Assembly (NCBI GenBank): GCA_024703915.1
Contig: CP087969.1
Location: forward strand, 5,022,001 to 5,086,000
DNA: 64,000 nucleotides
Direction: 5' to 3'
DNA from: Massilia sp. H-1
GTDB taxonomy: Bacteria; Pseudomonadota; Gammaproteobacteria; Burkholderiales; Burkholderiaceae_D
Part shown: positions 1,585 through 64,000 of the stretch, one piece after another
Layout of the letters: every line of letters begins with the position of its first letter
Position numbering within the stretch: position 1 is the first letter of the stretch
The notes under the pieces: model-generated
The model's input: only the letters and a program-made list of their open reading frames with translations
Databases searched by the model: none
Told to the model about the DNA's origin: nothing
Made by a program: the position numbers and the translations under genes

Positions 1585-3677
1585 ATGACCCATGCTGTTC
1601 TGGTGATCAGCGACCAGCTTCGTGATTCCAGTATTCTGCGGCAAGCGCTGGCCTTACGCGGCGAAATGCCGTTCGCAGTGGTTCCAGTGCGCAACCTGCA
1701 CGACGCGTTGCGCCGTCTGGACGCGGCGGCGGTCGACATCATCCTCCTCACCCTCGATCTGCCCGACAGCACCGGCCTGGCCACCTTCGAACGGGTGCAG
1801 GCGGCGGCGCTTAGCCACGCCGATCGTGATCCTGTGCGGCACGCCGGACGAGTCCGAAGCCATGGCCGCCATGCAGCGCGGCGCCCAGGGCTTTTTTCGA
1901 CGCGCAACATCGATGACGGCCTGGTGGCGCAGGCGCTGCGCAGCATGATTTGCCGCAAGTCGGTCGAGGAAGCCTTGCATCTCGAAAAAAAAAAAGCCGC
2001 ATCCTGCTCGAAGCGATCGGCGAGGCGGTGCTGGGCACGGATCTGCGCGGCAGCATCAGTTACCTGAACCACGTGGCCGAGGCAATGACAGGCTGGTCCG
2101 GCCACGAATGCGCGGGCCTGAACATCGCCGACGTGGCGCCGCTGGTCGATCCCTGCAGCCATGAACTGATCTGGGAAACCATGCTGCGCGCGATACGCGC
2201 CGACCAGCCGATCCAGACCGCGGCCGGGCTGGTGCTGGTCGGGCAGGACGGCCAGGAGCGCCCGGTCGACCTGACGGTCGGACCTGTGCACGAACGCAAT
2301 GGCCACCTGAGCGGGGCGGTGGTGGTCCTGCACGACGCCACCGAGGCCCAGGCCGCCAGCTACAAGAAGCTCACCTACCTTGCCGAGCATGATTTCCTGA
2401 CCGGCTTGCCGAACCGGCTGCTGCTCCATGACCGGATCTCGCAAGCGATCATCCAGGCCGGGCGCTCGGGCAAGGGCCTGGCCGTGCTGTTCCTCGACCT
2501 CGACAACTTCAAGCATGTCAACGATTCGCTCGGGCATGCGGTGGGCGACAAGCTGCTGCAGTCGGTCGCGCGCTCGCTGACCGATTGCGTGCGCACCAGC
2601 GACACGGTCAGCCGCCAGGGCGGGGACGAGTTCATCATCGTGGTGCTGGACGAATCCAACCCCGCCGATGTCGCCTTGTCGGCCGACAAAATCCTGGTAA
2701 GCATTGCTTAAGCGCCCACACGATCGACAACCACTTGCTGCATGTATCGACCAGCATCGGTATTGCCGTCTATCCACAAGATGGCCGGGACCCGGACACC
2801 CTGATCAAGAATGCCGACACCGCCATGTACTGCGCCAAGAGCGCCGGGCGCAACAGTTACCAGTTCTTCGACCGCGAAATGAATGTGCGCGCGGTCGAGC
2901 GCCAGATCATCGAGGCGCATCTGCGCGAGGCGCTCAAGCAGGGGCGAGTTCATGCTGTACTACCAGCCCAAGGTCGATCTGAGCAATTTCCGGATCACGG
3001 GAGCCGAGGCCTTGCTGCGCTGGCGCCACGACCTGCGCGGCGTGGTCTTGCCCGAATATTTCGTGCCGATCGCCGAAGACTGCGGGCTGATCGGCGCGGT
3101 CGGGCACTGGGTGCTGCGCGAAGCGTGCCGCCAGGCCAAGAGCTGGCACGATGCTTAGGCCTGCATTTCGGGCCGATCGCCGTCAATGTGTCGGCCACGG
3201 AATTTCGCAGCCGCACTTTCCTCGACGGCGTGCGCGCGGTGCTGGCCGAGACCGGCGTGCCGCCCTCGGCCATCGAGCTGGAACTGACCGAAAGCGTGCT
3301 GATGCAGGATGCCACGAGCAGCCAGGCGACCTTGCGCGCTCAAGGAACTGGGCATCGTGCTCAGCGTGGACGATTTCGGCACCGGCTATTCGAGCCTCAG
3401 CTATCTCAAACAATTTCCGATCGATGTGCTCAAGATCGACCAATCCTTCGTGCTGGACCTTGAATCCGATGCCGACAATGGCATCATCGTCACCGCCGTG
3501 GTCGGCATGGGGCGCAGCCTGGGCTTGCGCGTGATCGCCGAAGGCGTCGAGACGCAAGCGCAGTGCCAGTTCCTGCGCTCGCGCGACTGCGACGAGGCGC
3601 AGGGATATTTCTTCAGCCATCCGCTCGACGCCCAGGCGTTCTCGCAACTGGCCGCCACCGGCTTCGCGCGCAGCTGA
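1585..3677 (+). CDS. Receiver-PAS-GGDEF-EAL c-di-GMP signalling protein (frame broken)
   Basis: A cytoplasmic c-di-GMP protein of about 695 residues. Domains in order: a receiver-like domain ([11 protein letters not shown] through [15 protein letters not shown]), a PAS domain ([16 protein letters not shown]), a GGDEF domain with an intact SRQGGDEF motif, and an EAL domain with [25 protein letters not shown] and [10 protein letters not shown]. Both catalytic signatures are present, so synthesis, hydrolysis or both are possible. The frame breaks near 1811, 1900, 1990 (an A11 run), 2708, 2943, 3157 and 3340. Three of these (1811, 2708, 3157) are the recurrent TTAG/TTAAG insertions; the others are homopolymer-type indels. 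I treat it as one functional gene in the organism. Confidence 0.85.
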
Positions 3678-3822
3678 ACCATTTGGATCGGTGAACGACT
3701 TCCTGCCGTCGTCTGCTTTCCAAATCGCAACGTCGCCATTTCAGCCGCGGTCGTCAAGGTCGTCGCACATGGGGTCCAGGTCCGCGACATGGTCAACGGG
3801 CGGCGCTTGCCAATCCAGGGCG

Positions 3823-4017
3823 TCATTGCAGGGCCAGGTACAAGGTTAAATAGGCGCCGAATACTGGCACGAGCACGATGATGGTGGCTTGCGCCCATCG
3901 TTGCGCGGGCTCATAGAACGGCGAGGCGAAGATCTTTCTTATTGCATACGCATCGAGGCACAGACAGGCCATGGCAAGCGCCAAGAAAATCCACTGTGCT
4001 GGCGTGATGTTGTTCAC
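3823..4017 (-). CDS. Small two-helix membrane protein
   Basis: 64 residues, starting with GTG at 4017 (MNNITPAQWIFLALAMACL). It has one hydrophobic helix near the N-terminus and a second near the C-terminus (IIVLVPVFGAYLTLYLAL), with a short polar link containing DAYAIRKIFASPFY. The link pattern recurs in small proteobacterial membrane proteins of unknown function. The 145 bases between this gene and the GGDEF-EAL gene hold no other gene that I can see. Confidence 0.6.
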   Translation of the reverse strand: MNNITPAQWIFLALAMACLCLDAYAIRKIFASPFYEPAQRWAQATIIVLVPVFGAYLTLYLALQ

Positions 4018-4118
4018 CTTGTTCCTGACGGGCCGTCCTGGGAGTCTGAAGCCAATATTGTACTTGAATCGATGTGCGCCGGGCTGACAGCAGGCCCAAG
4101 CTGGCGTAAGCTTGCACC

Positions 4119-5442: not shown

Positions 5443-5445
5443 GCC

Positions 5446-6488: not shown

Positions 6489-6638
6489 TGATCTTTCCTC
6501 TCATCCACGAACCGATCATAGGTTGCGCTGGCGGGAACGTGAACGAATGTTTTCGAGAATGGATATAGCAAATGCTTCCTTGGTAGAGCGCAGCTCGTCG
6601 CATAGACTGGCCGCACTTCATTGCCCAGGAGGTGGCTC

Positions 6639-7404
6639 GTGTCCTATCCCGCATTAATCGCTTATCTGGCGCGCCTGTCCGACCCGGCTTAGGCCTGCCA
6701 TCGAGCCTGTGGCTCAACCCGCAAGGCCAGGCCGAAGGCCGCTTTTTCAACTGCACCCTGACCAGTGCCTTCCAGCCCGTGCGCGACGTGGTCAGCGGCC
6801 AATTGCGCGGCTACGAAGCCGTGGCGCGCAATGCCGAGCCCGGCGACGACAGTCCTTCGCTGTGGCGCCAGCTCGACCATGCCGCCAGCGACGACGAGTC
6901 GGTCGGGCTGGACCGCCTGTGCCGCATGCTGCACGCGATCAATTTTTTCCGGCAAGGCGAGGGCGGCGACGCCGATTTGTACCTGAGCGTGCATGACCGC
7001 CTGCTGAGCGCCAACCAGCGCTGGCTGCTCAGTTACGTGACGGACAATTACAAGCGCAATGGATTCCGCATGGCGCTCAATCTGCCGTCATTAGCCAGCG
7101 CGGCCGAATTGCTGAGCCAGGTGCAGTAGGCAGGCGCTGCATCGATGCCGACCAGGTCGGCGACGACGACACGCTGGCGCGTCTGATCACCGAGGTCGAC
7201 CGCCAGGGTGTGCAATTGATCGTGAGGAAAGTGGAAACGCTGGAGCGCCTGAGTCAGCTGATCCGGATCGCGGGCGCGCTGGGCTTGCCGGTGCAGGCCC
7301 AGGGTTACGCGCTCGGCATCCCGCGCGAGACCATCATCGCAGCGCCAAGCACGCCGAAAAGACACGCCACCGGGCGGGAGCTGCGGTGGCGTGCGCCGAA
7401 CTGA
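6639..7404 (+). CDS. Degenerate EAL-domain protein
   Basis: A cytoplasmic protein of about 250 residues, starting with GTG at 6639 six bases after a strong AGGAGG. It has an EAL fold signature (FQPVRDVVSGQLRGYEAVAR) but EAV in place of EAL, no DDFG block that I can find, and RKVETLERL where catalytic members have AEGVET. It ends LGLPVQAQGYALGIP. It is therefore probably a c-di-GMP receptor or protein-interaction module without phosphodiesterase activity. Breaks lie at 6691 (recurrent scar) and near 7126. The last codons run into the convergent terminator, so the stop at 7402-7404 may itself be displaced. Confidence 0.78.
7363..7393 (-). terminator. Rho-independent-type terminator for the coiled-coil gene
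   Basis: A nine-base stem, CACGCCACC at 7363-7371 pairing with GGTGGCGTG at 7385-7393, with a 13-base loop. Read on the minus strand it is followed by a short T run (GTCTTTT). It lies just past the stop of the minus-strand gene that ends at 7444. Confidence 0.65.
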
Positions 7405-7443
7405 CAGGTCAGGCGGACCCGGGGTTGCCGGGCCCGTTGCCGT

Positions 7444-8211
7444 TTACGCGGCTTTCGAGGCGGACAGACGCTTGAGGCGTTCGAGCGTGGTTTCGCCGCC
7501 CTTGTCGTCGGAAGCGACCGATTTGCGGATCGCGTCGAGTTCGGCCTTCTGGTCGAGCGGCTTCTGGCCGATGTCGGCCACGATGCGCAAGCCTTCGGCT
7601 TCGCTCGAGACGGCCTGGGCGCGGCGGGTCAGCGCGTTCAGGGCGGTCGAATTGCCCTTCATGCCCGACAGGCCGGACAGCTGGGCCTGACGCTCCATGC
7701 GCATTTCCTGCAGATCCTTCTGGGCCTTGGCGGCGGCCAGCTGCTGCATCGCTTTCTTGGCCTGGGCGTCGAATTCGGCCAGCTGCTGGCTCAGCGCGTC
7801 GATGATCTTTTGCAGTTCGTCCATGTAGGCCTTGGCGTCGGCTTCTTCCTGGATTTCCTGCGGCAGGCGGCTCTTGTTCGCTTCTGAGCTCGTCGCAGAA
7901 CATCGTCACGGTCGCTTCCGAGATGCTGCTTAGGGCCAGGCGCTCGGCCAGCTTTTCGGTGGCTTTCTCGTCGTTTTCGATCAGGGTGCGCAGGCTGACC
8001 ACGTCCTGGTGTTCTTTTTCGAACGACGAACGCGCTTTGGCCAGCACCTGGGCGGTTTCAGCGCAGGGTGGCGGCCAGGCGGTCGCGGTCGGCTTCAGGT
8101 AGCCGTTTCAGGGTCGAAGTTCGCGATCGCTTCCGAAATACGGTCGCCCAGCACGCCGAAATGCTTCGAAATCAGTCGTGCGGTCAGTCCCCATCCACTT
8201 GCGTTGCTCAT
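7444..8211 (-). CDS. Coiled-coil protein of yjfJ/K-type cluster (PspA/IM30-like)
   Basis: About 250 residues, mostly predicted helix and coiled coil rich in A, E, K, L and Q. It starts MSNASGWGLTARLISKHFG at 8211 after GAAAGGAAG. Segments include LAKARSSFEKEHQDVVSLR, IENDEKATEKLAERLA, MDELQKIIDALSQQLAEF and KAMQQLAAAKAQKDLQEMR. The position next to a DUF2491 gene is that of yjfJ, a PspA/IM30 homologue in enterobacteria, but I cannot show true PspA homology from the sequence. Breaks lie near 8100, 8055 and 7890. It is probably cotranscribed with the two upstream genes on the same strand. Confidence 0.7.
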
Positions 8212-8257
8212 TTTTGCTTCCTTTCGATGATTAGAAAATTCCCTGCACTCGTATCGT

Positions 8258-9047
8258 TTATTGCAAAACGATGCGTTCTTGCTCCATCGGTATGCCAATG
8301 ACGAAATCGACATGGATACCGCGTTTCGACGTATCACCGTTGACGCTGTCGATGATTTCCGTCGTGATGATCAGATACTCGCGGCCGCCGCCAGCCAGTT
8401 CACGCACATACGGCATGTAATACATTTCCTGCTTCAAGCCCTGCATGCCGCCCGCGTCGTCGATCCGCGTTTCCTTGCCGAAGAAAGGACGGACAAAGGC
8501 GGCGTCCAGATTGCTTAGGCGTCGCGCGTGTAATCGATGCGGTCGCTGTCGCCGAACACGGTGGCCAGGTCGGCATCGCTGAGCTGGTCGGCCAACTGCT
8601 CGCGCCACAGCGTGTAGGACTGGTCGCCCAGGCCCGCGCCTAGCCACGCCGGTGTAGGCGTCCTGGTCTTCCGCCGTTTCCGGCACCACGCGCGCCAGCT
8701 GGGTGCAGTACATGATCTCGGCGATATCGCCATCGGGATCGGCATACACTTGCAAGAACTTTTCGTCGGCATCCTGGTCGCCCTTGGCCAGGTAAAAGCG
8801 GAACAGGGCGCCGTCCAGGTTCAGCTTGATCTGCGACACCGCCAGCACGCGGGTGTCGCCGTCGTCCGGCATGCCGATCAGCGAACCGTTGGTCTGGGCC
8901 CGGATCACCGACCCTTTTTGCATCTGCACCACGCTGCCGATGCGGGCGCCCATCGGCAGCCCCTCGTCTTCGCGGCGCGCCTTGCCGTCCAGGCCGTGAT
9001 TGCTTAGCCATGCCGCGCATATAACTGAATACGTTCTTCCAACCCAT
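8258..9047 (-). CDS. yjfK: DUF2491-family protein (YjfK-like)
   Basis: About 260 residues of the DUF2491 family, cytosolic, function unknown. It starts MGWKNVFSYMRGMA at 9047, two bases after the stop of the upstream gene and with GGAATTGAG before it. Typical blocks are LPMGARIGSVVQMQKGSV, RFYLAKGDQDADEKFLQV, YADPDGDIAEIMYCTQL, AFVRPFFGKETRI and YLIITTEIIDSVNG. Breaks at 9004, 8640 and 8516 are all recurrent scars; restoring GCCAGC or GCTGGC rejoins the frames. The neighbouring coiled-coil and membrane proteins suggest a membrane-associated complex. Confidence 0.85.
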
Positions 9048-9048
9048 C

Positions 9049-9856
9049 TCAATTCCTATCAAACGAATAATTTGCCTGGCTCGGTGCGCTGCCGCGGCGC
9101 AGGAACTTCCAGCCGAAGTACAGTGCCCAGCCCACCACCGCGATGATCAGCAGCCACGCGAAGGTGCGCAGCACCGACATGAAGAAGGAACTGCCGCCCG
9201 GGGGCGCTGCCACCGCGCCGGTGTGTGGCCAACACGCCCGCCGTGCCCGGATAACCGTTCGCATGGGCATGCGAGGGGCTCATCGCGCGGCCCAGCAGGA
9301 AGCCGGTCACGATATTGCCGAAGCCGCTGCCGTGGTTGCCGTTGTTGATGATGATCGGGGCCGGAGTGGGACCGTAGCCTGGCTGGGCGCCGCCGTTGCC
9401 GCCATACGAGGGCGCGGGCTGAACCGGTGCTTAATGGCGGTGCATTGCAGGGCTTGCTCGGCGGCCTTGCGTTCGTCGTAGGTGCGGATCGCGTTCGACT
9501 GGGCATCGCCCTTGCTCAGGCGCTGGGACAGGGCCGAATCCGATTTTTGCGGCACTGCCGCGCTGTCCTGGCGCGGCGCGCTGCCGCCGAAGGAGCCGAA
9601 GCCGCCGCGGCTGGGCGCCGGCTGCCGGGGCCAGCACGGGCGGACGCGGCGCCGGCGTGCTGCTGCGGCTGCCGAACGAGCCGAATCCGCCGCTCGATGG
9701 CGAGGAACTGCGGCTGGGACTTGCGGATGAGGATTTTCCAGAGGAAAATCCGCTCTTGAACGAGCTCGACTTCGAAGGCCGCGTCGCTGCAGTCACATCG
9801 GTGACGACGGGCAGCATCAAGGCGAGCAACAGAGCAATCTTGAAGGACTTCATCAT
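9049..9856 (-). CDS. Secreted/membrane Gly-Ser-rich protein with C-terminal helix
   Basis: About 270 residues. The N-terminus MMKSFKIALLLALMLPVVTD is a signal peptide. Next is a low-complexity region rich in S, G, F, P and R (SSGGFGSFGSRSS and repeats of GGFGSFG), then a Pro/Gly/Asn-rich stretch (PAPIIINNGNHGSGFGNIV). A transmembrane helix follows (VLRTFAWLLIIAVVGWALYF) with a short basic tail. It probably anchors in the inner membrane with a flexible periplasmic part. Breaks lie near 9630, 9432 and 9228. It is the first gene of the coiled-coil/DUF2491 operon. Confidence 0.72.
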
Positions 9857-9938
9857 ATTATGGAGCCGTTAGTAAAGGTTGAAATAAGAATAACAGTACA
9901 AATGGTGCCATGCACCGGTAAAAAAGGCAAGAATCACC

Positions 9939-10431
9939 ATGACTCGACGTTATCTGGACATGAACCAGCACGATGCGCTCTATACCGTGGCGCGCCGCTT
10001 TCCCGGCGGGCTGGAAGTACTCATGAAGGACATCGGCATTTCCGTCAATGTCCTGCGCAACAAGCTGTCACCGACCATCGCTTCGCACTATCCCTCGTTC
10101 GAGGAAGTGTCCATCATCGTCGAACACTGCCACAAGGCCGAGCGTGCCCGACGCCCACATGCCGCTGCATGCCATGCTCGCCCGCCACGGCCTGGCCGCC
10201 TTTGTCGTACCGCATCCCGATCAGGCGGCGCGCGACGACTTGTCGCAAACCGTGTGCCGCGTCATGAGCGAAGTCGGCTCGGTGGCCGAAGCCGTGTCGG
10301 CCGCCTTGCTCGATGGCGTGGTCACCGTGGCCGAAGCGGATTTGATCGAGCGCGAATTTCACTCGGCGCTGTCGGCGCTGGGCGAATGGCGCGCCCGCCT
10401 GCGCATGAAGGCGGGCGTAGATCCGGACTGA
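9939..10431 (+). CDS. Phage CII-like regulatory protein
   Basis: About 164 residues of the phage regulatory CII (CP76) family. MNQHDALYTVARRFPGGLEV and MKDIGISVNVLRNKLSPTI form the DNA-binding half. The C-terminal half (VCRVMSEVGSVAEAVSAALL, EREFHSALSALGEWRARL) is the usual helical extension. The start could be 9939 or the ATG at 9960; both are plausible. One break near 10143. No phage genes are near, so this looks like a domesticated chromosomal regulator. It is divergent from the DUF2491 operon and may control it. Confidence 0.83.
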
Positions 10432-10848
10432 TCAGCGGGTTTGCGGCTTGCGCTCCGGCGCCGGACGCAGCGACTTGAGGAACAGGCCGAGGCCGCCGAA
10501 GGCCAGCGTCACGATGCAGATCAGCTCGAAGGCCGACATGGTACGCAGATTCATGCTCACCGACGAGATCACGCCGAACACGAGTGCGGCGAAGGAGCCG
10601 ATCCCGATCAGCCAGCCCAGGTAGTTCTTGGCGTTGTAAAACACCATGCCGATGCCGATGATGAGTGGAATCATGATCATGCCGCCCGTGACGCCATAGC
10701 CGCCGCCGATGCCGAACAGGCGCGAGCCGAGTCCGAAACTGGAACTGACGACGATGCCGTTGAGCAGCAGGTAAAATCCGCCGCACATCATGATGAGGCC
10801 GAGGAAAAACTGCCCGCTGCCTCCGCTGGTACCGCCTGCTCCGTTCAT
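10432..10848 (-). CDS. Polytopic membrane protein, unknown function
   Basis: 138 residues starting MNGAGGTSGGSGQFFLG at 10848 after AAAGGGATTTCC. Four hydrophobic segments: FFLGLIMMCGGFYLLLNG, GVTGGMIMIPLIIGIGMVFY, GWLIGIGSFAALVFGVIS and AFELICIVTLAFGGLGLFL. The tail is basic (APERKPQTR). The reading frame is unbroken. It abuts the CII-like gene tail to tail with no gap. Confidence 0.8.
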   Translation of the reverse strand: MNGAGGTSGGSGQFFLGLIMMCGGFYLLLNGIVVSSSFGLGSRLFGIGGGYGVTGGMIMIPLIIGIGMVFYNAKNYLGWLIGIGSFAALVFGVISSVSMNLRTMSAFELICIVTLAFGGLGLFLKSLRPAPERKPQTR

Positions 10849-10905
10849 GGAAATCCCTTTCTGATTCATTGATGCCGACATTTTAGCAAACAATATTATT
10901 AGTAA

Positions 10906-10922
10906 TGCATCATTTTGATGCA
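10906..10922. promoter_or_regulatory. Palindrome between divergent genes
   Basis: TGCATCA at 10906-10912, a TTT centre and TGATGCA at 10916-10922 form a perfect 7-3-7 palindrome in a short A/T-rich gap between the divergent membrane-protein and nuclease genes. It could be an operator. It overlaps the ATG at 10918, which makes the later TTG at 10939 a possible true start of the nuclease. Confidence 0.4.
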
Positions 10923-11719
10923 GCAGACGAAGAGTAAAGCTTTGACCTATCCAGTACCACGGTTATTTTTCCGGCGCATTACCGCGCTGGTGTTTTTCGC
11001 AGCATGCAGTGTGGCCGAGGCGAAGTTCATGCCTTCCGTGCCGCAGCGGGACTTCACCGAATGCAAGCAGTTCTTCATGCCGGCGGCAAGGTGCCGGTGT
11101 TCCAGTCGCGTCCGCCCGCCAAGGCGCGCCCGCTCTGTTACGACGCCTTCGCCGTCCTGCATTCGGGCGCGACCAAGACGCCGCTGTATGTGGCCGAGCG
11201 CATCAACCGGGCCTAGCCTGCTCGAGGCGGCCGGTGAGAAACGCAGCAATCACTTCTTTGCCGACGCCCGCCTGCCGCAGTCGGAGCGGGCCGCGCTCGA
11301 CGACTACAAGGGCAGCGGCTACGCGCGCGGGCACATGGCGCCAAGCCGCCAACATGGGCAGCGCCGAAGCGATGGCGCAGAGTTTTTCGCTGGCGAACAT
11401 GGTGCCTCAGGCGCCGCGCAACAACTCCGGTCCGTGGGCGGGCATCGAGAAGGCGACCCGCAAGTACGTGATGCGGGCCAGCGGGGACGTGTATGTGATC
11501 ACCGGCCCCGTGTTCGACGATTCGGGCGAAGCGATCGGGCCGGGGCGGGTGCGGGTGCCGCGCTATCTGTTCAAGCTGGTGTACGACCCGGCTTCCCAGC
11601 GCGCCTGGGCGCACTGGCTGGAAAACAGCGAGCAGGCGCGCACCGGGCGCCCGATCGACTACGAGGAGCTGGTCAAACGGACCGGCATCGAGTTCCTGCC
11701 GGGGCTGACCGTCAGATAG
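10918..11719 (+). CDS. Secreted DNA/RNA non-specific endonuclease (NUC1 family)
   Basis: About 265 residues. A signal peptide ([17 protein letters not shown]) directs it to the periplasm or outside. The nuclease domain shows [21 protein letters not shown], then [11 protein letters not shown] and [18 protein letters not shown]. The His of RGHMAP is the general base and the Asn of the NSGPW block helps bind magnesium; family members usually have DRGH, here [16 protein letters not shown] closes the core. Breaks lie near 11080, at 11214 and at 11342; the last two are GCCAGC-type scars. Likely role: nucleic-acid degradation for nutrition, or matrix turnover. Confidence 0.85.
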
Positions 11720-11726
11720 CGCCATG

Positions 11727-12375
11727 CTACCCAGGCGCGCACATAGTCCGGGGCCGCGACCGCGCAGGCGGGATCGGCCACCGGCGCTGCGCGCTGCACC
11801 CGGAACGGCAGCTCAGCCTAGCCCAGGCGGCAATGCCCATTTCCTCTTCCTCGTCCTTCGGTGGGCCGGTGCGCACCTTGCACGCCGCTTCATCGAGCGC
11901 GATGCGCATGATGGTGGTGGCGGCGAATTCCTTGTCGTTGCCGCGCCGCGCCTCGTGCTGGCGGCCGGGCGCGATCTTGTCCATGAAGACGTCCATCGTC
12001 GAACGCCGGTGCGCCTCGTCGTCCACTTTTTCGAAGCAACCGTAGATCATCGCCGAGCGGTAATTCATCGTGTGGTTGAAGGCGGTCCGGGCCAGTACCA
12101 GGCCGTCCAGATGCGTGATCGTCACGCAGGCCTGGGTCCCCTTGGCCAGCAGCTTGATCAGGCGCCCGCCGTTCGAACCGTGGATGTACAGATGCTCGCC
12201 TTCGCGCCAGCAGGCGGTCGGGATGCAGTGGGTGCCATGCGGCGTCGGCAAAGGCGACGTGGCACAGATAGGCGTCGTCGATGATCGCGTGCAGGGTCGC
12301 GCGTTGGTAGTCGGCGTTGTTGTCGGCGCCGCGGCGAATACGGGTGCGGTCGGTCGGGGGCAGTGGTGCGGTCAT
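11727..12375 (-). CDS. Pyridoxamine 5'-phosphate oxidase-family flavoprotein
   Basis: About 215 residues from an ATG at 12375. It reads [29 protein letters not shown], then [50 protein letters not shown] and [20 protein letters not shown]. This is the split-barrel FMN-binding fold of the pyridoxamine-oxidase-like group that pairs with MocR regulators. Breaks lie near 12243 and 11822; the second is a GCTAGGC scar and beyond it another frame supplies the last 30 or so residues, so the exact stop is uncertain. Divergent from a MocR gene that probably regulates it. Confidence 0.8.
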
Positions 12376-12419
12376 GGCGTTCCGTTCAAGTGAGTGAAGG
12401 CGTAATATAATCGCATCAC

Positions 12420-12440
12420 TGGCTCCAGCATAAGGTCCAG
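12420..12440. promoter_or_regulatory. Direct repeats, candidate MocR operator
   Basis: In the 91 bases between the divergent PNPOx-family and MocR genes, TGGCTCCAG at 12420-12428 and AGGTCCAG at 12433-12440 form imperfect direct repeats. A TATAAT-like hexamer lies at 12406-12411. MocR proteins of the PdxR type bind direct repeats in such divergent promoters, so these are good operator candidates. Confidence 0.45.
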
Positions 12441-12466
12441 AACAACACTAATTTATAGGGCCACGA

Positions 12467-13935
12467 ATGGACTACGCATTGCTCATCGACCGCTACGCGC
12501 AGCAACATGCGGCCGCCGCCTGGCCGCGCCAGCGCCTGCTGCACGCCTGCCTGCGCGAGGCGATTCGCAGCGGCGTGCTGGCCATCCGCACGCGCCTGCA
12601 GGCCAGCCGCGCGCTGGCGCAGGAGCTGGGCATGGCGCGCAACACGGTGCTGTACGCCTACGACCAGCTGGCCACCGAAGGCTTCGTTCTGCCCGATCGG
12701 CGCGGCACGGTCGTGGCTTCGCTGGCGCCAGTCGGCGGCGAGCGGCGCACGCCGGCTGCCATGCCGCCGCCGCTGTCGCGCCGGGCCGGGGCGCTGCATG
12801 CGATGCGCGCGCCCGAACTGTCCACCGCCGGTTTTGCGCCCGGCGTTCCCTCGCTGGCCGATTTTCCGCTGGCCGTGTGGCGCCGCCTGCTCGACCGCGC
12901 CCTGCGCGAGGGCGGCGCGGCGGGCCTGGGCTAGGCGACCCGGCCGGCGAAAGCGAGCCTGCGCGAAGCGATCATGCTTACCACTTGCGCGCCGCGCGCG
13001 GCGCCGACTGCGACGCGGGCCAGGTTTTCATCACCGCCTAGGCACCCAGTCCAGCCTGGACCTGTGCGCGCGCGCCCTGGCCGACGCGGGCGACAAGGTC
13101 TGGATCGAAAACCCGGGTTACAGCGGGGCGCTGGCCGCGTTTCGCGGAGCCCAGCTCAAACCGGTCGGCATTCCGACCGACGGGCAGGGCATCCATCCTT
13201 CGGCCGCCGACTGGCGCCTGCACCGTCCGCGCCTGATCTACACCACGCCGTCGCACCAGTATCCGACCGGGAGCATCCTCAGCCTGGAGCGGCGCCTGGC
13301 GCTGATCGCCCGCGCGCGCAAGCGGGCGCCCTGATCATCGAGGACGACTACGACAGCGAATTTCGCCACGACGGCCCGCCGCTGCTTACCATGCAGGGGC
13401 TGGAAGCCGATGCGCCTGTGGTCTACCTGGGCACCTTCAGTAAGACCATGTTCCCGGCGCTGCGGATCGGTTTCGTGGTGGTGCCGCGCGCTGGCCGAGC
13501 AGGTCGGGGGCGCTGCTGCTGCGTTCGTCCCATGCGGGGCGCGGCGCCGAACAGCTGGCGCTGGCCGCGTTTCTGCGCGACGGCCAGTTCGCGCTGCACC
13601 TGCGGCGCATGCGCCGTCTGTACCGCCAGCGGCGCGACGCGCTGGTGGCCGCGCTGGAACTGCACCTGGGCGAGGTGGGCAGCGTGCACGGCGGCTCGGC
13701 CGGTATGCACCTGGCATTCCAGCTGCACGACGCGCGCCAGGACGACAAGCTGCTGGCCGAACTGGCCCTGCGCGCCGGGATCGTGGCGCCCGCGCTCAGC
13801 GCCCACGCGACCGGTGCGCGCGCCAATGGCTGGAACGGCTTCCTGCTCGGCTACGCGCAAGTGCCCGCGCAGGAGATGGATGCCCTGGTCAGGCGCCTGG
13901 CCGCCGCCTGGGCGACGGCGCCCAAAACACGCTAG
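12467..13935 (+). CDS. MocR-family (GntR-aminotransferase) regulator, PdxR-like
   Basis: About 485 residues. The N-terminal winged helix reads LREAIRSGVLAI, RLQASRALAQELGMARNTV and YDQLATEGFVLPDRRGTVV. The C-terminal fold-type-I aminotransferase domain carries GTQSSLDLCARALADAG, WIENPGYSGAL, YTTPSHQYPTG, IIEDDYDSEFRHDG and the PLP-lysine block GTFSKTMFPALRIGF. Such proteins sense pyridoxal phosphate and its derivatives. Breaks near 12934, 12977, 13038, 13325 and 13490-13560. At 13038 ITAGTQSS is recovered by restoring GCCGGC. It is divergent from the PNPOx-family gene. Confidence 0.88.
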
Positions 13936-14065
13936 GCGATTGCACGGCAGCCAAGCGACCAATTCGGGCCGCCTGCGTTGGCTTCACGCGACGCGAGCCG
14001 GTCTTTCTTCGCTGGCAGCCTCCAAATGGTCTCGGTGTTGATATAATGAAAATATTGTAAATATA

Positions 14066-14239
14066 TTAGTCGATGCCCCTGACACGTTTTTTCTTTTTCT
14101 CCGGGACCGACTGCTCCTGGTCCGGCTTGATGGCTAAGCGGTGGAGCAAGCGGCAAGGGGAAACCGACAAAAACCAGGATAAAAAGACCGGCAGCAGCAG
14201 GTAAAAGAGTGGTCTTTTCCAGTTGAGTTTGCGTTTCAT
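14066..14239 (-). CDS. Possible small membrane protein in a 357-base gap
   Basis: Weak candidate in the gap between the MocR gene and the DUF2262-like gene (13936-14292). It reads MKRKLNWKRPLFYLLLPVF, then LSWFLSVSPCRLLHRL and a basic tail. One hydrophobic helix, 57 residues, no clear ribosome site. A GCTAAGC scar-like word at 14132 may shift its frame. The rest of the gap is A/T-rich around 14040-14070 and contains TATAAT at 14042-14047, which reads like a plus-strand promoter. Nothing else is supported there. Confidence 0.3.
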   Translation of the reverse strand: MKRKLNWKRPLFYLLLPVFLSWFLSVSPCRLLHRLAIKPDQEQSVPEKKKKRVRGID

Positions 14240-14292
14240 CATAGGCAACAGATGCAGCCATGGAGCCGTTATTCAAGTTGCAAGGAATCAAA

Positions 14293-14818
14293 ATGCTGAA
14301 CCGCTTCAAACAACTGATCAATTTATCCCTGACCGACGAGCCGCGCGAGGCGGTCGATCATCCCATCCTGGGCCGCCTGGCGCCGCTCGGCGAAGACCAG
14401 TCGACCCTGGTCGGGCTGGCGCCGCACGGCGCGCGCACGGTGACCCTGCGGGTCGCGGCCGACGACAGCGAGCTGGGCGCGGCGCTGGAGCTGGCCACCT
14501 CGGCCGTGCAGTCGCTGCTGGTGCTCGACGCCAAGGCGCGCAAGCTGGTGTCGGACGCCAGCCTGAAAAGCTATAACGACGAATGGCGCTTCGGTACCTC
14601 GCTGATGGCCGACGGCTCGGCGCGCGGATTCGAAAAGCCTAGCCCTGTCGGAAGAAGAATTCTGCGCCCAGCTGCAGCTCGAAGCGGTCGAGGCCAATGG
14701 CGCCGCATGCCTGACGTTCTCGTACACCGATGGCGGTCTGTTCTGGGGCCACAGCCATTACGTGTCCGCGTTCGACGGTCTGGCGATGCAGGACGTGAAC
14801 GTGTCGATGCTCGGTTAA
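14293..14818 (+). CDS. DUF2262-like protein, unknown function
   Basis: About 174 residues, cytosolic. The start MLNRFKQLINLSLTDEP at 14293 follows AAGGAATC. The first part, HPILGRLAPLGEDQSTLVG and VTLRVAADDSELGAA, with a helical SAVQSLLVLDAKARKLVSD, resembles the DUF2262/DUF6985 type. After a break at 14639 (a GCCTAGC scar) another frame gives LSEEEFCAQLQLEAVEANG and LTFSYTDGGLFWGHSHYVSA, the expected C-terminal half. Its stop TAA shares bases with the stop of the convergent kinase gene. Confidence 0.7.
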
Positions 14819-16248: not shown

Positions 16249-16250
16249 GG

Positions 16251-16940
16251 CTACTCGCTGACCAGCTGGTAGCCGAGCCGGTACACGGTTTGCAGGCAGG
16301 AGCGGCCGTCGGCGAAGCCGCCCAGCTTCTGGCGCAGGCTGCTCATGTGGACGTCGATATTGCGGTCGAAGCGGGCCATGGGCCTAAGCCCAGGCCTTGT
16401 TCGGACAGCTCATTCTTGCTGACCGGGCGGCTAGGCATTGCGCGCCAAAATATCGAGCAGATTGAATTCGGTGCTGGTCAGGGCCAGCGGGGCGCCGTCC
16501 CAGAAGGCGCGCCGCTGGGCCGCGATGATGGTCAGCTTGCCGACCGTGAGCGGGGCCAGGCTGGCGGCGTCGTCCGGCGGCGGGTTGGTGCGGCGCAGGA
16601 TGGCGCGGATGCGGGCCGTCAGTTCGCGCGGCGTGCAGGGCTTGGTCACGTAATCGTCCGCGCCCAGTTCCAGGCCGAGGATGCGGTCGGTGTCGTCGCC
16701 GCGCCCGGTGAGCATCAGGACCGGCATGCGGCTTTTTCGCGGATCTTGCGCAGGGTGTCGATGCCGTTCATGCGCGGCATCATGACGTCCAGGATGGCGA
16801 TCGCGTAGTTGCCGCTCAGGGCTTCGCGCGCCTTGCTGGCCGTCGTGCGCGCAGCCCACGGCAAAGCCTTCCTGCGCCAGGTATTCCCGGAACATGGCGA
16901 CCAGTTCGACATCGTCGTCTATCAGCAGTACATGACTCAT
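16251..16940 (-). CDS. CpxR-like OmpR-family response regulator
   Basis: About 228 residues. The receiver starts MSHVLLIDDDVELVAMFREYL. Across two breaks it supplies ILDVMMPRMNGIDTLRKI (phospho-Asp in LDVMMP), MLTGRGDDTDRILGLELGAD and DYVTKPCTPREL. The winged helix has LTVGKLTIIAAQRR, LTSTEFNLLDILARN and, beyond scars at 16432 and 16384, ARFDRNIDVHMSSLRQKLG with YRLGYQLVSE. Indels lie near 16845 and 16733. It is followed closely by the kinase gene and is divergent from the Spy-like gene, with two CpxR-like repeats between, so autoregulation is likely. Confidence 0.9.
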
Positions 16941-16993
16941 GCGGCCATCATAGCAAAGGCTTAGGCCCCGGCCAAGTGCGCCGGAATGCGCTC

Positions 16994-17029
16994 TTTACCC
17001 GCTTTTACATTGTCCTTACCGCGCTTTAC
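16994..17029. promoter_or_regulatory. Tandem CpxR-like boxes
   Basis: TTTAC-CCGCT-TTTAC at 16994-17008, then CTTAC-CGCGC-TTTAC at 17015-17029, exactly 21 bases (two helical turns) apart. On the other strand these read GTAAA-N5-GTAAA and GTAAA-N5-GTAAG, the known CpxR consensus form. They lie between the divergent regulator/kinase operon and the Spy-like gene. One further single box of each type occurs at 33677 and 35177. Confidence 0.75.
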
Positions 17030-17075
17030 ACCGGCCCGCCCGAAGATGGCGTCTTCCCACTTCACTGGAGCGAAC

Positions 17076-17525: not shown

Positions 17526-17545
17526 TCTGTCACCAGGAGAGCGCG

Positions 17546-18376: not shown

Positions 18377-18494
18377 TTTTTGCTCCTCAGTAAAATTCCT
18401 TGTTGTCAGGATGTCTTTTGTAAGAAATATCCTACATAAAGTGAAGGGAAAGCAGGGATAATGTGAAATAACTTTCCAAGTCGCAAGCGGCACC

Positions 18495-21812
<3,318 letters not shown>

Positions 21813-21825
21813 GGCGAACGCGCCG

Positions 21826-27065: not shown

Positions 27066-28019
27066 ATGAGCGCAGCAGCGGTATTCCATGAAGGCGAGCG
27101 CGCGGTGCAGGCGCGCACCGGCGAGACGGTCATCGCCGACCATAACGGCACCGTGCTGTCGGCGCAGGTCATTCCCGGCGCGCTTTCATCAGCAAACAGT
27201 TCATGGTGGCCGTGGCCAGCGTCGGTCCGGACGGGCGGGTATGGTCGTCCGTCCTGTTCGGCCAGCCCGGCTTTCTGCAGGCTAGAGCGACGGCGGCACG
27301 ATCCAAGTCGCCATGCCCGAAGCGGCGCGCGACCTCGATGATCCGTTCTGGACCAATATCGCTTAAGCAATGCCCATGTCGGCATGCTGTTCATCGAGAT
27401 CGGCTCCTTGCGCTTGCTATCGCGTCAATGGCCAGCTGGTTGCCAGCAGCGCGCAAGGCATCGAGATCGGCATCCGCGAGGCCTACCCGAACTGTCCCAA
27501 GTTCATTCAGCGCCGCAAGCTCCTCGACATGGGGACGCGCGACGCGCTGGCCGCACCGGTCACGCGCGGCACGCTGCTCGAAGGCGCTGTCGCGGATTTG
27601 GTGCGCCAGGCCGACACCCTGTTCGTGGCCAGTGTGCACCCGGAACGCGGGGCCGACGCCTCGCACCGCGGCGGCAGGCCCGGTTTTGTGACGATGCGCG
27701 ATGCGGCCACCTTGCGCATTCCCGATTATCAGGGCAACAGCATGTTCAACACGCTCGGTAACTTCAGCGTCGATCCGCACGCTCTAAGCATCTGCATTCC
27801 CGATTTTGCTTAAGCAACCGTCTGCTGCAACTGACCGGGACCGTGGAACTGCATTTCGACGCGCCCGACCCGCATGGCCTCACGGGCGGCACGGGCCCGC
27901 TTCTGGGACTTCCGGATCGCGTCCTGGACCTTGCATGCCATCCCCCAGCGGCTGGAATGGGAATATCTGGATGCGTCGCCGTTCAATCCCGCTGCTTAGG
28001 CGAAGGAGCGCTGTCATGA
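27066..28019 (+). CDS. Large pyridoxamine-oxidase-like FMN protein
   Basis: About 310 residues from an ATG preceded by CAGGAGACGATC. It has FHEGERAVQARTG, ISKQFMVAVASVGPDGRVW, SSVLFGQPGFLQA, SNAHVGMLFIEIG, RYRVNGQLVASS, REAYPNCPKFIQRR, FVASVHPERGADASHRGG, RPGFVTMRD and PDYQGNSMFNTLGNF. This is the long PNPOx-like group often linked to ferredoxin reductases. At least seven breaks. The apparent stop in GCTGCTTAGGCG at 27994-28001 is a scar; restoring GCTGGC extends the protein to a TGA overlapping the next ATG (ATGA). Probably an FMN oxidoreductase working with the downstream reductase. Confidence 0.8.
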
Positions 28020-33764: not shown

Positions 33765-34583
33765 ATGGAACAGCAGGGCGAACACGCGGGCGAAGGCCTG
33801 GCACAGGATACGGCGGCAATGCTGGCGCTGGCGGGACGGCGCCGCTCGCTGCGCTGGCTGCTGGCCGCGGCGACGCTGCCGCTGGCCGGATGCGACCGCG
33901 CCTTCGGCACGGCGCCGGCAGGGCGCGGCCAGCTGCCCCGCCATTCCCGACGAAACTGGCGGCCCGTATCCGGCCGACGGCAGCAACCACGGCCCGCGCG
34001 GGCGTGGTCAACGCGCTGGCGCTGGCCTAAGCATCGTGCGGCCCGACATCCGGCGCGGCGCCGACGGCGGCGCCCAGGCGCAGGGAATCGCACTGACGCT
34101 CACGCTGCAGGTGGTTAATGCGGCTGACCGCTGCCAGCCCATGCCTGGCGCGGCGGTCTACGTCTGGCATTGTGACCGCGAGGGCCGCTATTCGCTGTAC
34201 GCACCGGGTCTGGAGCAGGAAAGCTACCTGCGCGGCCTGCAGCAGGCCGACGACAACGGCATCGTGACCTTCACCACCATCTTCCCCGGCTGCTACCCGG
34301 GCCGGATGCCGCACGTGCATCTGGAAGTCTTTGCCAGCGTGGAGCAGGCGCTGGCCGGACAGGGCAAGCTCAAGACCAGCCAGTTCGCCTTCCCCATGGG
34401 CGCCGTGAACGAAGCCTACAAGGATCCCGCCTACGCGGCCAGCGTCGTCGCACATGGCTAAGCCAGAGCCTGGAACACGACATGGTGTTTCGCGACGGGC
34501 GCTCCGGTTCACAGATCGCCACCGTCGACGGCGGCCTGGCGCAAGGCTTTTCCGCCAGCCTCACGCTGGGCGTAGCCGCCTAG
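33765..34583 (+). CDS. Tat-exported intradiol dioxygenase-like protein (copy 2)
   Basis: About 270 residues, starting at 33765 after AGGGAACG. The leader has GRRRSLRWLLAAATLPLAGC, a twin-arginine lipoprotein signal. The body repeats copy 1: PDETGGPYPADGSN, VYVWHCDREGRYSLYAP, ESYLRGLQQADDNGIVTFTT and FPGCYPGRMPHVHLEVF with the Tyr and His positions of the iron site. Breaks near 33945, at 34028 and 34460; the last two are scars that repair to LALASIVRPDI and HGASLEHD. A CpxR-like box lies upstream and a Spy-like gene lies downstream, as for copy 1. Confidence 0.85.
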
Positions 34584-48843: not shown

Positions 48844-52134
<3,291 letters not shown>

Positions 52135-52220: not shown

Positions 52221-52682
52221 CTATTTGTAGATGCTTAGGCGCCGATCAGGACGTCGCCGTGCTTCTCGACGTAGGTGGACTTCGCTTCGATCGCTTTCGA
52301 TACCGGATTCGGCCACTTGTAGTCAACCCAGCCCTTGCCCTTGCCATTGGCGGTGTCGATGAAGCTGCGCACGATGGGCACGCCTTCGGCATCCTTGAGG
52401 TCGATCAAGTCCTTGCCGATCATCTTGGGATTGGCGCCATGGGCGACGGCCGTTCCCTTCCAGGTCGTACACCATGATGTACAGGTCGCGGTCCTTGAAG
52501 GCGCCGTTCGGATTGTTGAACTCGGCATACGCCTTGTCCTTGCCATTGGCCTTCAGATAGGCGCCCGCCTTTTGCACCAGCGCGACCGCCTCGGCCGCGC
52601 TGCCTTTGTCGGCCGCAACGGCCTGTCCCTGCAGAGCAAGCGCACACAGTAGCGTGGCGCCAAACGTCAACATCGACTTCAT
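52221..52682 (-). CDS. Secreted single-Cache-domain protein
   Basis: About 152 residues, starting MKSMLTFGATLLCALALQG with a signal peptide. AVALVQKAGAYLKANGKDKA, YAEFNNPNGAFKDRDLYIMV, AHGANPKMIGKDLIDLKDAE and GWVDYKWPNPVSKAIEAKST are the blocks of stand-alone Cache proteins that bind small ligands in the periplasm. A break near 52455. The apparent stop after LIGA at 52238 is a GCCTAAGC scar; with it repaired the protein ends IYK at 52221. No receptor gene is adjacent. Confidence 0.83.
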
Positions 52683-60153: not shown

Positions 60154-60825
60154 GTTACAGACCGCGCTGGAAGCAGCATCAGGTGCTGCCTGGAATCCTG
60201 CTTGAGGGTGTACAGCTGGGCTTAGGCCGGTGCGCGCCTGCCGCTTCGAAGCAGCCTTCGACTGGTTCCAGCATGTCCATTTCCGTGACCTTGCGCCGGA
60301 AGCTGACCTTGTTCAGCGTTTCACCCATCAACACTTCATAGATGCGCTGCAATTGCGGCAGCGTGAACGATTCCCCCGCCAGAAAGCAGGGTAGTGAGGA
60401 ATACTGGCTCTTGTTGCGCAGGCGCTCGACCGCCATCCCGATGATATGGGCATGGTCGAACGGCAGTGTGCCCAGCGCATCAGGCTTACTGCAGCTGAAC
60501 CTGCGAACCACTGGCCTGATCGATGATCTCAAACGGAACCAGGGCGTAATGCGCGACCGAGACCGACCAGCCGCGCGGGTCGCGCCCGGGGCCGGAAAAG
60601 GTGCCCAGCTGCTCCAGATAGGGCGGAACGACGCCTAGCCTTGGCCGTAATGACGCGCATGGCCGCCGCGTACACGCTGGCATCTTTGTCGGCGTGAATA
60701 TAGCCACCCGGCAGGGCCAGCTGACCGGCGTAGGGTTCCTGCTCGCGCCGGATGAGGGCCGCCATCAGCACATCGTGCCGGATGGTCAGCAGGACGACGT
60801 CCACGGTACAGATCACTTGCGTCAT
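60138..60825 (-). CDS. nrtR: NrtR-like Nudix-fold transcriptional regulator of NAD synthesis
   Basis: About 225 residues. [40 protein letters not shown] and [17 protein letters not shown] form a Nudix domain whose box lacks the catalytic REXXEE, as in NrtR, which binds ADP-ribose or similar ligands. [20 protein letters not shown] and the winged helix ([35 protein letters not shown]) follow. Breaks at 60640 (GCTAGGC scar), 60485 and 60224. Its divergent position before pncA-pncB-nadE and a palindrome between them fit NrtR regulation. Confidence 0.87.
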
Positions 60826-60863: not shown

Positions 60864-60878
60864 AAGTATCCCATACTT
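60864..60878. promoter_or_regulatory. Candidate NrtR operator
   Basis: AAGTAT, CCC, ATACTT at 60864-60878, a perfect 6-3-6 palindrome in the 113-base gap between divergent nrtR and pncA. It sits in A/T-rich DNA where both promoters must lie. NrtR operators are palindromes in such gaps; the exact consensus for this group I cannot check. Confidence 0.6.
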
Positions 60879-60938
60879 AGTTGCAAAAGTAAATTAAGTC
60901 GATTATGCTTGATGTACAGTATCTAAAAGGACACGAAA

Positions 60939-61799: not shown

Positions 61800-61800
61800 T

Positions 61801-63024
61801 ATGCCAGTATCTACCATGACCCCGGTCGTTCGCAGTCTGCTTGAAACCGATTTATATAAATTCACGATGTGGCAGGCGCTGTTGCACGGCCATCCAGCGG
61901 CCCAGGCCGAATATGCCTTTGTTTGCCGCAACAAGCCAGCCTATCCGCTGGCCGAACTGAAGGCGGACGTCGAACGCGAGCTCGATCATTTGTGCAGCCT
62001 GGCGTTTGCGCCCGACGAGATCGCCTATCTGCGCTCGCTGCGCTTCATTAAAAGCGATTTCGCCGATTTTCTGACCGTATTCCGCTTCCAGCGCCATTTC
62101 ATCAGCGTCGGCACCGAAGGCGAGGAGCTGACCATCCGCGCCGTCGGCCCGCAAGTGCACGTGATGGGCTTTGAGATTTTCGTTCTGTATATCGTCAATG
62201 AGCTGTATTTCCGGCGTTTCGACCAGGAGAGCGCGCTCGGCGAAGGGCGCAAGCGCCTTGGCGCCAAGATCGACCTGCTGCGCGTGTTTGCCAGCGAGCC
62301 ACTTTGCCTGCATCCATTCGAGTTTTTCGATTTCGGCGTACGGCGCCGTTTTTCAGGCGCCTGGCATGAAGAAGTCGTTGCCACGCTGGCGCGGAAGTGC
62401 CGCAGTTTTTCAAGGGCACGTCCAACGTCTATCTGGCGATGAAATACAAGCTGGTCCCGATCGGCACCATGGCGCACGAATACCTGCAAAGCTTCCAATC
62501 CTTTGGCGTGCGCCTGCGCGATTTTCAGAAGGCGGCACTGGAAGACTGGGTGCAGGAATACCGGGGCGACCTTGGAACGGCGCTGACCGACGTGGTGGGC
62601 ATGGACGCCTTCCTTGCCGATTTCGATCTGTACTTCGCCAAGCTGTTCGACGGCCTGCGCCATGATTCGGGCGACCCCGTGGAATGGGGCGAGAAGGCGC
62701 TCGCGCATTACGCCAAATTGCGGCTTGATGCCCATACGCGCCGATTGGTGTTTTCCGACGGACTGGATCTGCCGACCGCGTTTTCGCTGTACCGCCATTT
62801 CGCAGACCGCACCATGACCGGATTCGGTATCGGCACCAATCTGTCCAACGATACCGGCATCAAGGCGCTCAATGTGGTGATGAAGCTCATGTCGTGCAAT
62901 GGCCAGCCGGTCGCCAAACTGTCCGATTCGGCTTAAGAAAACACTGTGCAAGGACGAGACCTTCCTCGCCTATTTGCGCCAGGTGTTCCATCATCCTGTG
63001 ATTGCAGGAGACAGCCAGTCATGA
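61801..63024 (+). CDS. pncB: Nicotinate phosphoribosyltransferase
   Basis: About 400 residues. [117 protein letters not shown] and [14 protein letters not shown] are the PncB blocks. Breaks near 62390 and at 62933, where GCTTAAGA interrupts the family motif SDSAGKTLC; downstream the frame continues to [18 protein letters not shown] with a TGA overlapping nadE (ATGA). Makes NaMN from nicotinate and PRPP. Confidence 0.92.
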
Positions 63025-64000
63025 AAATCGCACTCGCACAACTGAACCCCACCGTGGGTGATCTGGACGGCAATGCGACAAGGATCATCGTGGCCATGCA
63101 AGGCAGCGAAGCCGATCTGCTGGTGTGCACCGAATTGTCCCTGTGCGGCTATTATCCGGGCGATTTGCTGGAGGAGGAATCGTTCCTGGCCCGGACCGAG
63201 GCTGCGCTTGCAAAGGTGCTGACCGCGTCCAAAGCCGTTCCCGCACTGGTATCGGTCATCGGCACGGTGCGCCTGCAACCGCGGGCCGGGCAAGCCGTTG
63301 TTCAATGCGCTGCTGGCGATCCGCAACGGCGAAGTGGTCGCCGAGTATTACAAGCAGCTGTTGCCAACCTATGGCATTTTCGACGAGCGGCGCCATTTCG
63401 AGCCGGGACCGGAGGGCGCCTGCCTGCTCGACGTCGTCGCTGCACGGTCGGTTTTCTGATTTGCGAAGACGGCTGGAACAGCAATGGCCGCGATTACAAG
63501 GTCGATCCTTTCGCCGCCCTGCGCGCCGAAGCGCCCGATCTGGTCGTGAGTATTAACGCCAGTCCCGCGAATATCGGAAAGCGTGAGCAGCGCCATGCAC
63601 TGTTCCACGCCGCCGCACGCACCAACCGGCTGCCGATCGTGTACGTGAACCAGGTCGGCGGCCAGGACCAGCTGGTATTTGACGGTGCCTCGTTCGCAGT
63701 AACGCCGCAAGACGGCGTCGTATTCGAGATGCTTAGGCGTTTGAAACAGGCTTCGCGCGTATTGAATTTAATGCTGGCCAATTCGTGCAACGCGCCACGC
63801 AAGAGGCACTGCCGCTGCGGAGTTTGCCCGCCGCCAGATTGTGCTCGGTTTGCGCGACTACGCGCGCCGCTGCGGTTTTGGCAAAGCGGTGGTGGGCTGC
63901 TCAGGGCGGAATCGATTCGGCGCTCACCCTGGCACTGGCGGTGGAAGCGCTGGGCGCGGACAATGTGACTGCCATTACGATGCCGTCGGCTTTTTCCAGC
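63021..64000 (+). CDS. nadE: Glutamine-dependent NAD synthetase (3' end outside window)
   Basis: At least 325 residues are visible. The N-terminal glutaminase domain (nitrilase fold) reads [40 protein letters not shown] with the catalytic Glu, EYYKQLLPTYGIFDERRHF with the Lys, and VGFLICEDGW with the nucleophilic Cys. SINASPANIGKREQRHALF and VYVNQVGGQDQLVFDGASF follow. The synthetase domain starts near 63830 with VVGCSGGIDSALTLALAVEA, the ATP-binding loop, and is cut at the edge. Breaks near 63295, 63445 and 63830, and at 63735 (CTTAGG scar). Completes the NAD salvage operon. Confidence 0.92.

What the first reader, a model, noticed from the sequence alone, without database searches (positions are those of the whole stretch)
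1811..63740. Recurrent T/A-rich insertions at GCCAGC / GCTGGC / GCCGGC across the whole window
About eighty reading frames are broken by words such as GCTTAAGC, GCTTAGGC, GCCTAGC, GCTAAGC, GCCTAAGC, GCTAGGC or GCCAAGC. Wherever the protein family fixes the true residues, the words replace GCCAGC, GCTGGC or GCCGGC with one or two bases gained (a few cases differ or are substitutions only). Many intact GCCAGC words also exist, so the change is partial. The simplest reading is a systematic base-calling error at a modified motif of the type GCYRGC in an uncorrected long-read assembly. If so, the errors are an indirect footprint of a DNA methyltransferase in the source strain. Homopolymer indels elsewhere support an uncorrected assembly.
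Basis: partly seen in the sequence, partly recalled or inferred. Interest (0 to 1): 0.85.

Follow-up and report, generated by a model that had tools for sequence, protein, structure and literature searches.

The report
Sequencing-error scars at methylated GCCGGC sites
The odd extra T and A letters are most likely reading mistakes that a long-read sequencer made wherever the bacterium chemically marks the DNA word GCCGGC, so they are probably not real mutations, but they point to the restriction-modification genes that the strain carries.

Summary
The scars are in the sequence and far above chance: 76 of the seven main scar words in the window against 3.7 expected from two congeners. The source word is GCCGGC. 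Genome-wide there are 1645 GCCGGC against 9544-23450 in 16 congeners, and 1773 GCTTAAGC against 13-41. In the well-conserved rpoB region 10 of 10 aligned GCCGGC sites are altered. The assembly is only 48% complete and rpoB is split.

Outside the window lies one C5 methyltransferase beside Vsr and a NaeI-family restriction enzyme; NaeI binds GCCGGC. None of the 16 congeners has a NaeI hit. Two relatives with the same three genes have ordinary GCCGGC and GCTTAAGC counts. Best reading: an unpolished, probably nanopore, assembly with systematic insertions at methylated GCCGGC. An artefact whose motif leads to its candidate enzyme.

The parts
1809..63738 (.). span of the 76 scar words of the seven main types GC(TTAA|TTAG|CTAA|CTA|TAG|TAA|TTA)GC; first at 1809-1815, last at 63731-63738
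   Evidence: expected 3.7 from two congeners
9002..9008 (.). scar GCTTAGC; the aligned word of congener G015 is GCCGGC
16382..16389 (.). scar GCCTAAGC; aligned G015 word GCCGGC, 10 of 10 flanking bases identical on both sides
20265..20272 (.). scar GCTTAAGC; aligned G015 word GCCGGC
27808..27815 (.). scar GCTTAAGC; aligned G015 word GCCGGC
34025..34032 (.). scar GCCTAAGC; aligned G015 word GCCGGC
51096..51102 (.). scar GCCTAGC; aligned G015 word GCCGGC
52233..52240 (.). scar GCTTAGGC; aligned G015 word GCCGGC, 10 of 10 flanking bases identical on both sides
60633..60639 (.). scar GCCTAGC; aligned G015 word GCCGGC

Best explanation
The sequence is a single-contig, unpolished long-read (probably Oxford Nanopore) assembly of an Oxalobacteraceae bacterium. 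The strain carries a NaeI-type restriction-modification locus whose C5 methyltransferase marks cytosine in GCCGGC, most simply the central CpG cytosine on both strands. The base caller, not trained on this mark, reads the central CG as T/TT/CT or C followed by A/AA/AG, mostly with one or two bases gained. The exact miscall depends on the flanking base, so the consensus keeps it. Shown here: the source word, its loss genome-wide, a poor assembly with a split essential gene, the adjacent methyltransferase-Vsr-NaeI genes, and ordinary word counts in two relatives that have the same genes. Inferred: that the methyltransferase is active on GCCGGC, that the mark is 5mC at position 3, and that the platform is nanopore.
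For: Of all 6-mers, GCCGGC is the most depleted by z-score (135 seen, 825 expected; next ATTGGC 174 of 447) and has the highest length-change rate of those with at least 60 sites (0.387). It is also the best consensus of the relative's six-base words opposite scars (mean distance 0.93, next 1.30; 152 scars). Genome-wide GCCGGC:CGGCCG is 0.19 against 1.46-1.76 in 16 congeners. In the rpoB region 10 of 10 GCCGGC sites are altered (9 in length, 1 by substitution), against 5 of 23 GCCAGC/GCTGGC (1 in length). Completeness is 48%, and rpoB, one open 1379-aa frame in G015, gives five matches in several frames here. Scar form follows the flank: when the next base is A, 90% of 342 right halves are AA. 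C5 MTase (PF00145), Vsr (PF03852, 1.7e-28) and NaeI (PF09126, 8.6e-48; PDB 1ev7, 7.5e-26) genes are adjacent. No PF00145 hit in the nearest relatives G007, G013 and G015; no PF09126 hit in 16 of 16 congeners. The same three genes lie together in G199 and G232, whose GCCGGC ratios and GCTTAAGC counts are ordinary. Homopolymers of 5 or more are shorter in this genome in 10 of 64 clean comparisons and longer in 1 (132 mixed runs left out).
Against: No reads, signal or platform record. The methyltransferase's target is inferred from its neighbour and from the scars, not measured. GCCGGC accounts for only part of the broken frames: of 524 persistent frame shifts inside genes 99 face GCCGGC and 124 more contain a scar word by a broad definition, but 301 do neither. 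In rpoB itself only one of the three altered GCCGGC sites shifts the frame on its own (+2); another is +1 with a one-base loss beside it, the third is +3; homopolymer and other indels do the rest. Some scars face other words, two of them CCAGC words in the rpoB region. Seven of the 11 congeners searched for PF00145 have a C5 methyltransferase gene of their own, of other lineages. Published nanopore modification errors that I read about are mainly substitutions. The homopolymer evidence is modest.
Confidence: 0.93

Rival explanations
1. The insertions are real: the lineage has gained T/A bases at GCCGGC, through a mutator or a site-specific element, and the genes are decaying pseudogenes.
For: GCTTAAGC is listed repeatedly along the first 400 kb (the listing is capped) and scar density is similar in 19 sampled 20-kb stretches; 16 congeners lack the excess.
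Against: Completeness is 48% and rpoB is split, in part by a scar, which a living cell could not bear. Scar form follows the flanking base. Cytosine deamination gives substitutions, not insertions (established knowledge). Two relatives with the same three restriction-modification genes show no excess.
Confidence: 0.02
2. The bases are real and are read through by programmed frameshifting or recoding.
For: The scars contain TAA/TAG and shift frames in otherwise conserved genes.
Against: Gains of one or two bases would need thousands of frameshift events of both signs. Homopolymer shortening, dinucleotide-repeat losses and a second error type also occur.
Confidence: 0.01
3. It is a base-calling error caused by the sequence context GCCGGC itself, with no DNA modification.
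For: Error form depends on the flank, and other errors also occur in C|G contexts.
Against: GCCGGC stands 9544-23450 times in the congeners, and this genome is the only one with a GCTTAAGC excess of this size among the 294 searched, although the others' platforms are unknown. Near neighbours change length far less often: ACCGGC 9%, TCCGGC 5%, GTCGGC 3%, against 39%. The one C5 methyltransferase found sits beside a NaeI-family gene.
Confidence: 0.04

Closest known systems
Modification-mediated errors in nanopore assemblies of Listeria (Modpolish paper, PMC10687267; abstract, part 1 of 5 of the text and search passages seen)
   Same: Low-quality assemblies whose errors sit at short motifs (GCAGC, GCTGG); in four strains with one motif a methyltransferase-encoding defence system is present
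   Different: There the excess errors are mismatches and the method ignores insertion and deletion gaps; here one or two bases are gained and genes lose their frame
Methylation-induced R/Y ambiguity in Klebsiella and other species (PMC11610573; passages seen)
   Same: Modified native DNA confuses the base caller at motif-specific positions
   Different: Mainly A/G and T/C ambiguity with no coherent known motif; here one palindromic motif, most sites altered, net insertions
NaeI restriction-modification locus (PF09126; PDB 1ev7, 1iaw)
   Same: NaeI-family endonuclease beside a C5 methyltransferase and Vsr; NaeI binds GCCGGC (PMC9802373, table passage)
   Different: Endonuclease and methyltransferase genes are split between frames in this assembly; specificity and activity not measured
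GCCGGC m5C methylation of Aeromonas hydrophila NEB724 (PMC8565308, table passage) and NgoAIV of Neisseria gonorrhoeae (PMC12871193, passages)
   Same: m5C methylation of GCCGGC; at the third base in Aeromonas, which fits the central CG of the scars
   Different: Other organisms; no relation of their methyltransferases to this one was tested

Membership tests
modification-mediated long-read assembly error | errors concentrated at one short motif | tested here: met
   GCCGGC has the highest length-change rate (6-mers with at least 60 sites) and the strongest depletion; other error types exist too
modification-mediated long-read assembly error | the genome encodes a modification enzyme expected to act at that motif, and relatives without it lack the errors | tested here: met
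   C5 MTase-Vsr-NaeI locus; no PF00145 hit in G007, G013, G015; no PF09126 hit in 16 of 16 congeners; specificity inferred by homology
modification-mediated long-read assembly error | the errors follow the sequencing method, not the genes | tested here: inconclusive
   G199 and G232 carry the same three genes with ordinary counts, but their platforms are not known
modification-mediated long-read assembly error | errors vanish after amplification or with short reads | not testable with these tools
   no reads or raw signal on hand
NaeI-type restriction-modification locus | NaeI-family endonuclease | tested here: met
   PF09126 E 8.6e-48 for profile positions 15-175; a second piece covers 167-239 in another ORF
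NaeI-type restriction-modification locus | adjacent C5 methyltransferase | tested here: met
   PF00145 in two ORFs, E 1.5e-47 and 4.9e-11
NaeI-type restriction-modification locus | intact reading frames | tested here: not met
   methyltransferase and endonuclease are each split between frames; not decisive, because rpoB is split in this assembly too
NaeI-type restriction-modification locus | activity on GCCGGC | not testable with these tools
   needs a digest or a methylation assay

The most novel reading that the evidence does not exclude
Deposited low-quality assemblies carry a readable methylome: motif-specific insertion scars, measured against congeners, name the methylated word and point to the restriction-modification locus without any raw signal. 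A bolder sub-case is that the mark is not plain 5mC but a bulkier cytosine modification, which would explain why bases are gained rather than substituted.
Probability: 0.15. Interest if true: 0.5.

Novelty: new member of a known kind. Interest (0 to 1): 0.3.

Why it matters
Gene calls, pseudogene counts and completeness for this genome are unreliable, and protein families or 'broken genes' taken from it should not be trusted. The case also shows that a motif read from a bare sequence file, by comparison with congeners, can lead to a matching restriction-modification locus 2 Mb away: a cheap way to screen public assemblies for hidden methylation and for this type of error.

Tried and rejected
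GCYRGC as the motif: rejected, because GCCAGC/GCTGGC counts and conservation are normal. GCCCGC/GCGGGC as a second motif: it has an 18% length-change rate (52 of 284) and only 20% unchanged, but its counts are not depleted (791 seen, 813 expected) and only part of its changes are scar words, so I take divergence and GCGC losses as the better explanation; not proved. rRNA as a test of intolerance: uninformative, because the rRNA locus fetched from G015 has no GCCGGC. CG read as CAG as a second modified motif: 39 of 23663 CG sites, at most 1.5% in any five-base context listed, so not a fully modified motif. rRNA copies of this genome differ from each other at matching sites, which fits random consensus error, but real copy differences are not excluded. 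Rfam and tRNA scans of the window found nothing. Pfam on ten long window ORFs gave ordinary families or none. Literature: ten searches. I saw no report of insertion scars at GCCGGC in those listings or in the passages I read, but most subscription journals are missing, so I make no claim of priority. The genome-contig scan only placed the organism near Oxalobacteraceae (Rugamonas, Pseudoduganella, Janthinobacterium among the best hits); no species name was obtained. Methyltransferase families searched in this genome were PF00145, PF01555 and PF02384 only.
Full report
What was checked. The window is G000:C1:5022001-5086000 of a 5,836,689-base single-contig genome with a completeness of 48%. Related loci place it near Oxalobacteraceae such as Rugamonas and Pseudoduganella; the 16 other genomes of its genus held here are unnamed. 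No species name was obtained.

The scars are in the sequence and are not chance. The seven main scar words occur 76 times in the window; the rate in 376 kb of congeners G015 and G013 predicts 3.7. Genome-wide GCTTAAGC occurs 1773 times, against 13-41 in the 16 congeners and at most 152 among all 293 other family members searched. The density is similar elsewhere: 15 to 31 scar words in each of 19 other 20-kb stretches sampled.

The source word is GCCGGC. G015 is collinear with the window and its surroundings. Of 264 kb, 207 kb aligned; 284 GCCGGC sites of G015 had good flanks, 10 of them read GCCGGC in this genome and 110 changed length. For GCCAGC/GCTGGC, 49% of 702 were unchanged and 56 changed length (Fisher p 1e-28). 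Those 56 (8%) exceed the 3.9% mean of all hexamers. Within the window alone 3 of 69 GCCGGC sites are unchanged and 81 of 178 of the other two words. In 444 kb GCCGGC falls from 825 expected to 135, while GCCAGC/GCTGGC stay at 1811 of 1880. Genome-wide GCCGGC is 1645, against 9544-23450 in congeners, while the reversed control word CGGCCG, 8570, lies within the congeners' 6494-13976; the congener ratio predicts about 12,500 to 15,100 sites. Read the other way, 298 scars were found in the 264 kb; 231 aligned, 189 had good flanks and 152 of these faced a six-base word. 59 of the 152 faced GCCGGC, 13 GCTGGC and 4 GCCAGC, and GCCGGC is the best consensus. Since six intact control words are conserved at only 27-51%, this is what a single source word plus divergence would give. 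A low rate at GCCAGC is not excluded.

Best-aligned case. In the region around rpoB (three alignments, 92-96% identical, one of them a 522-base overlapping second match) all 10 aligned GCCGGC sites are altered: 9 change length and 1 reads GCCAGC. Of 23 GCCAGC/GCTGGC sites 18 are unchanged and 1 changes length. Two scars there face CCAGC words. rpoB gives five matches in several frames here, against one open frame of 1379 aa in G015. It holds three altered GCCGGC sites, of which one shifts the frame alone, one has a one-base loss beside it and one adds three bases; homopolymer and other indels make the other breaks. A living bacterium needs rpoB, so the assembly is wrong there, and at least one scar is among the wrong places. 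This supports the artefact reading but does not prove it for every scar.

Shape of the scar. In the main words the outer GC and GC stay and the central CG becomes T, TT or CT followed by A, AA or AG. The outcome depends on the neighbour: when the next base is A the right half is AA in 90% of 342 cases, against 40-51% with other neighbours. Counting intact words against the seven scar words, TGCCGGCA is intact in 1 of 34 and AGCCGGCG in 22 of 28. The intact share is overstated, because other altered words were not counted. This is how a base caller with a short context behaves, and errors centred on the CpG cytosine of both strands suggest that the third base is marked. RIMS-seq lists m5C at the third base of GCCGGC in Aeromonas hydrophila NEB724 (PMC8565308, table passage). 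The position in this strain is inferred.

The enzyme. The PF00145 search finds one C5 methyltransferase gene, in two adjacent ORFs, next to Vsr (PF03852, 1.7e-28) and a NaeI-family endonuclease (PF09126, 8.6e-48; PDB 1ev7, 7.5e-26), at C1:3045936-3048490. NaeI binds GCCGGC (PMC9802373, table passage); the review PMC4081073 prints the site differently, apparently a misprint. PF00145 was not found in the nearest relatives G007, G013 and G015; seven of the 11 congeners in that search have C5 methyltransferase genes, which are only distantly like this one (26-38% over the N-terminal piece). PF09126 was found in 3 of 294 family members: this genome, G199 and G232. Both others carry all three genes together, with 58% and 72% identity over the N-terminal piece of the methyltransferase. 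Their GCCGGC:CGGCCG ratios (1.76, 1.48) and GCTTAAGC counts (39, 20) are ordinary. Having the locus does not by itself alter the word. Their sequencing platforms are unknown, so this control is suggestive only. A Vsr neighbour is expected of a 5mC system, since Vsr acts on T:G mismatches from deaminated 5mC (established knowledge).

What does not fit neatly. Of 524 persistent frame shifts inside G015 genes (640 in all), 99 face GCCGGC and 124 more contain a scar word by a broad definition; 85 lie at homopolymers of 4 or more and 216 are unexplained (random intervals contain GCCGGC in 3%). Alignment noise at about 80% identity and other consensus errors contribute: losses in CGCGCG-type repeats, shortening of runs of 5 or more in 10 of 64 clean comparisons against lengthening in 1, with 132 mixed runs left out, and a rare CG to CAG error (39 of 23663). 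In the rpoB-region alignments 9 of 26 insertions and 1 of 17 deletions are at GCCGGC. So the assembly is poor in general, and GCCGGC is the strongest single motif among its errors.

Comparison with the known. The Modpolish paper (PMC10687267; abstract, part 1 of 5 of the text and passages) describes nanopore Listeria genomes with errors at GCAGC and GCTGG, in part linked to a methyltransferase-encoding system, and amplification greatly reduced them. Those errors are mismatches and the method ignores gaps. PMC11610573 (passages) describes mainly A/G and T/C ambiguity. Here the errors are net insertions at one palindrome. I count this as a new member of that known kind and make no claim of priority.

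Verdict. Artefact, confidence 0.93 that it is a base-calling error at modified GCCGGC. Interest is modest: the result undermines gene-level reading of this genome and shows that a bare assembly can reveal a methylation motif and its candidate enzyme.

Noticed in passing
G000:C1:3045936-3048490 (L154 11936-14490): C5 methyltransferase, Vsr and NaeI-family endonuclease cluster in a stretch of 50% GC; the sequence upstream has 60% and that downstream 50%. Perhaps acquired; not tested.
   Followed up: yes
alignment of G000:C1:5002001-5266000 with G015; rRNA loci L119, L121, L123: A second, rarer error gains an A between C and G (CG to CAG), more often after T-Y; similar gains differ between rRNA copies.
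   Followed up: partly
same alignment; rpoB region L167: Losses of two bases in GCGCGC-type repeats and shortened homopolymers.
   Followed up: partly
G000:C1:2924431-2925039 (L156): An amino-methyltransferase domain (PF01555) just downstream of a hisD-like ORF, perhaps an orphan adenine methyltransferase; both names are recalled from the look of the sequence, not tested.
   Followed up: no
G000:C1:594742-595682 and 2978002-2978685: Two further N6 methyltransferase loci (PF02384); their motifs were not looked for.
   Followed up: no
444 kb sample of G000: ATTGGC, GTGGCA, CAGTGC and CAATGG are half as common or less than in G015 and G013; codon usage or composition seems likely, but was not tested.
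   Followed up: no
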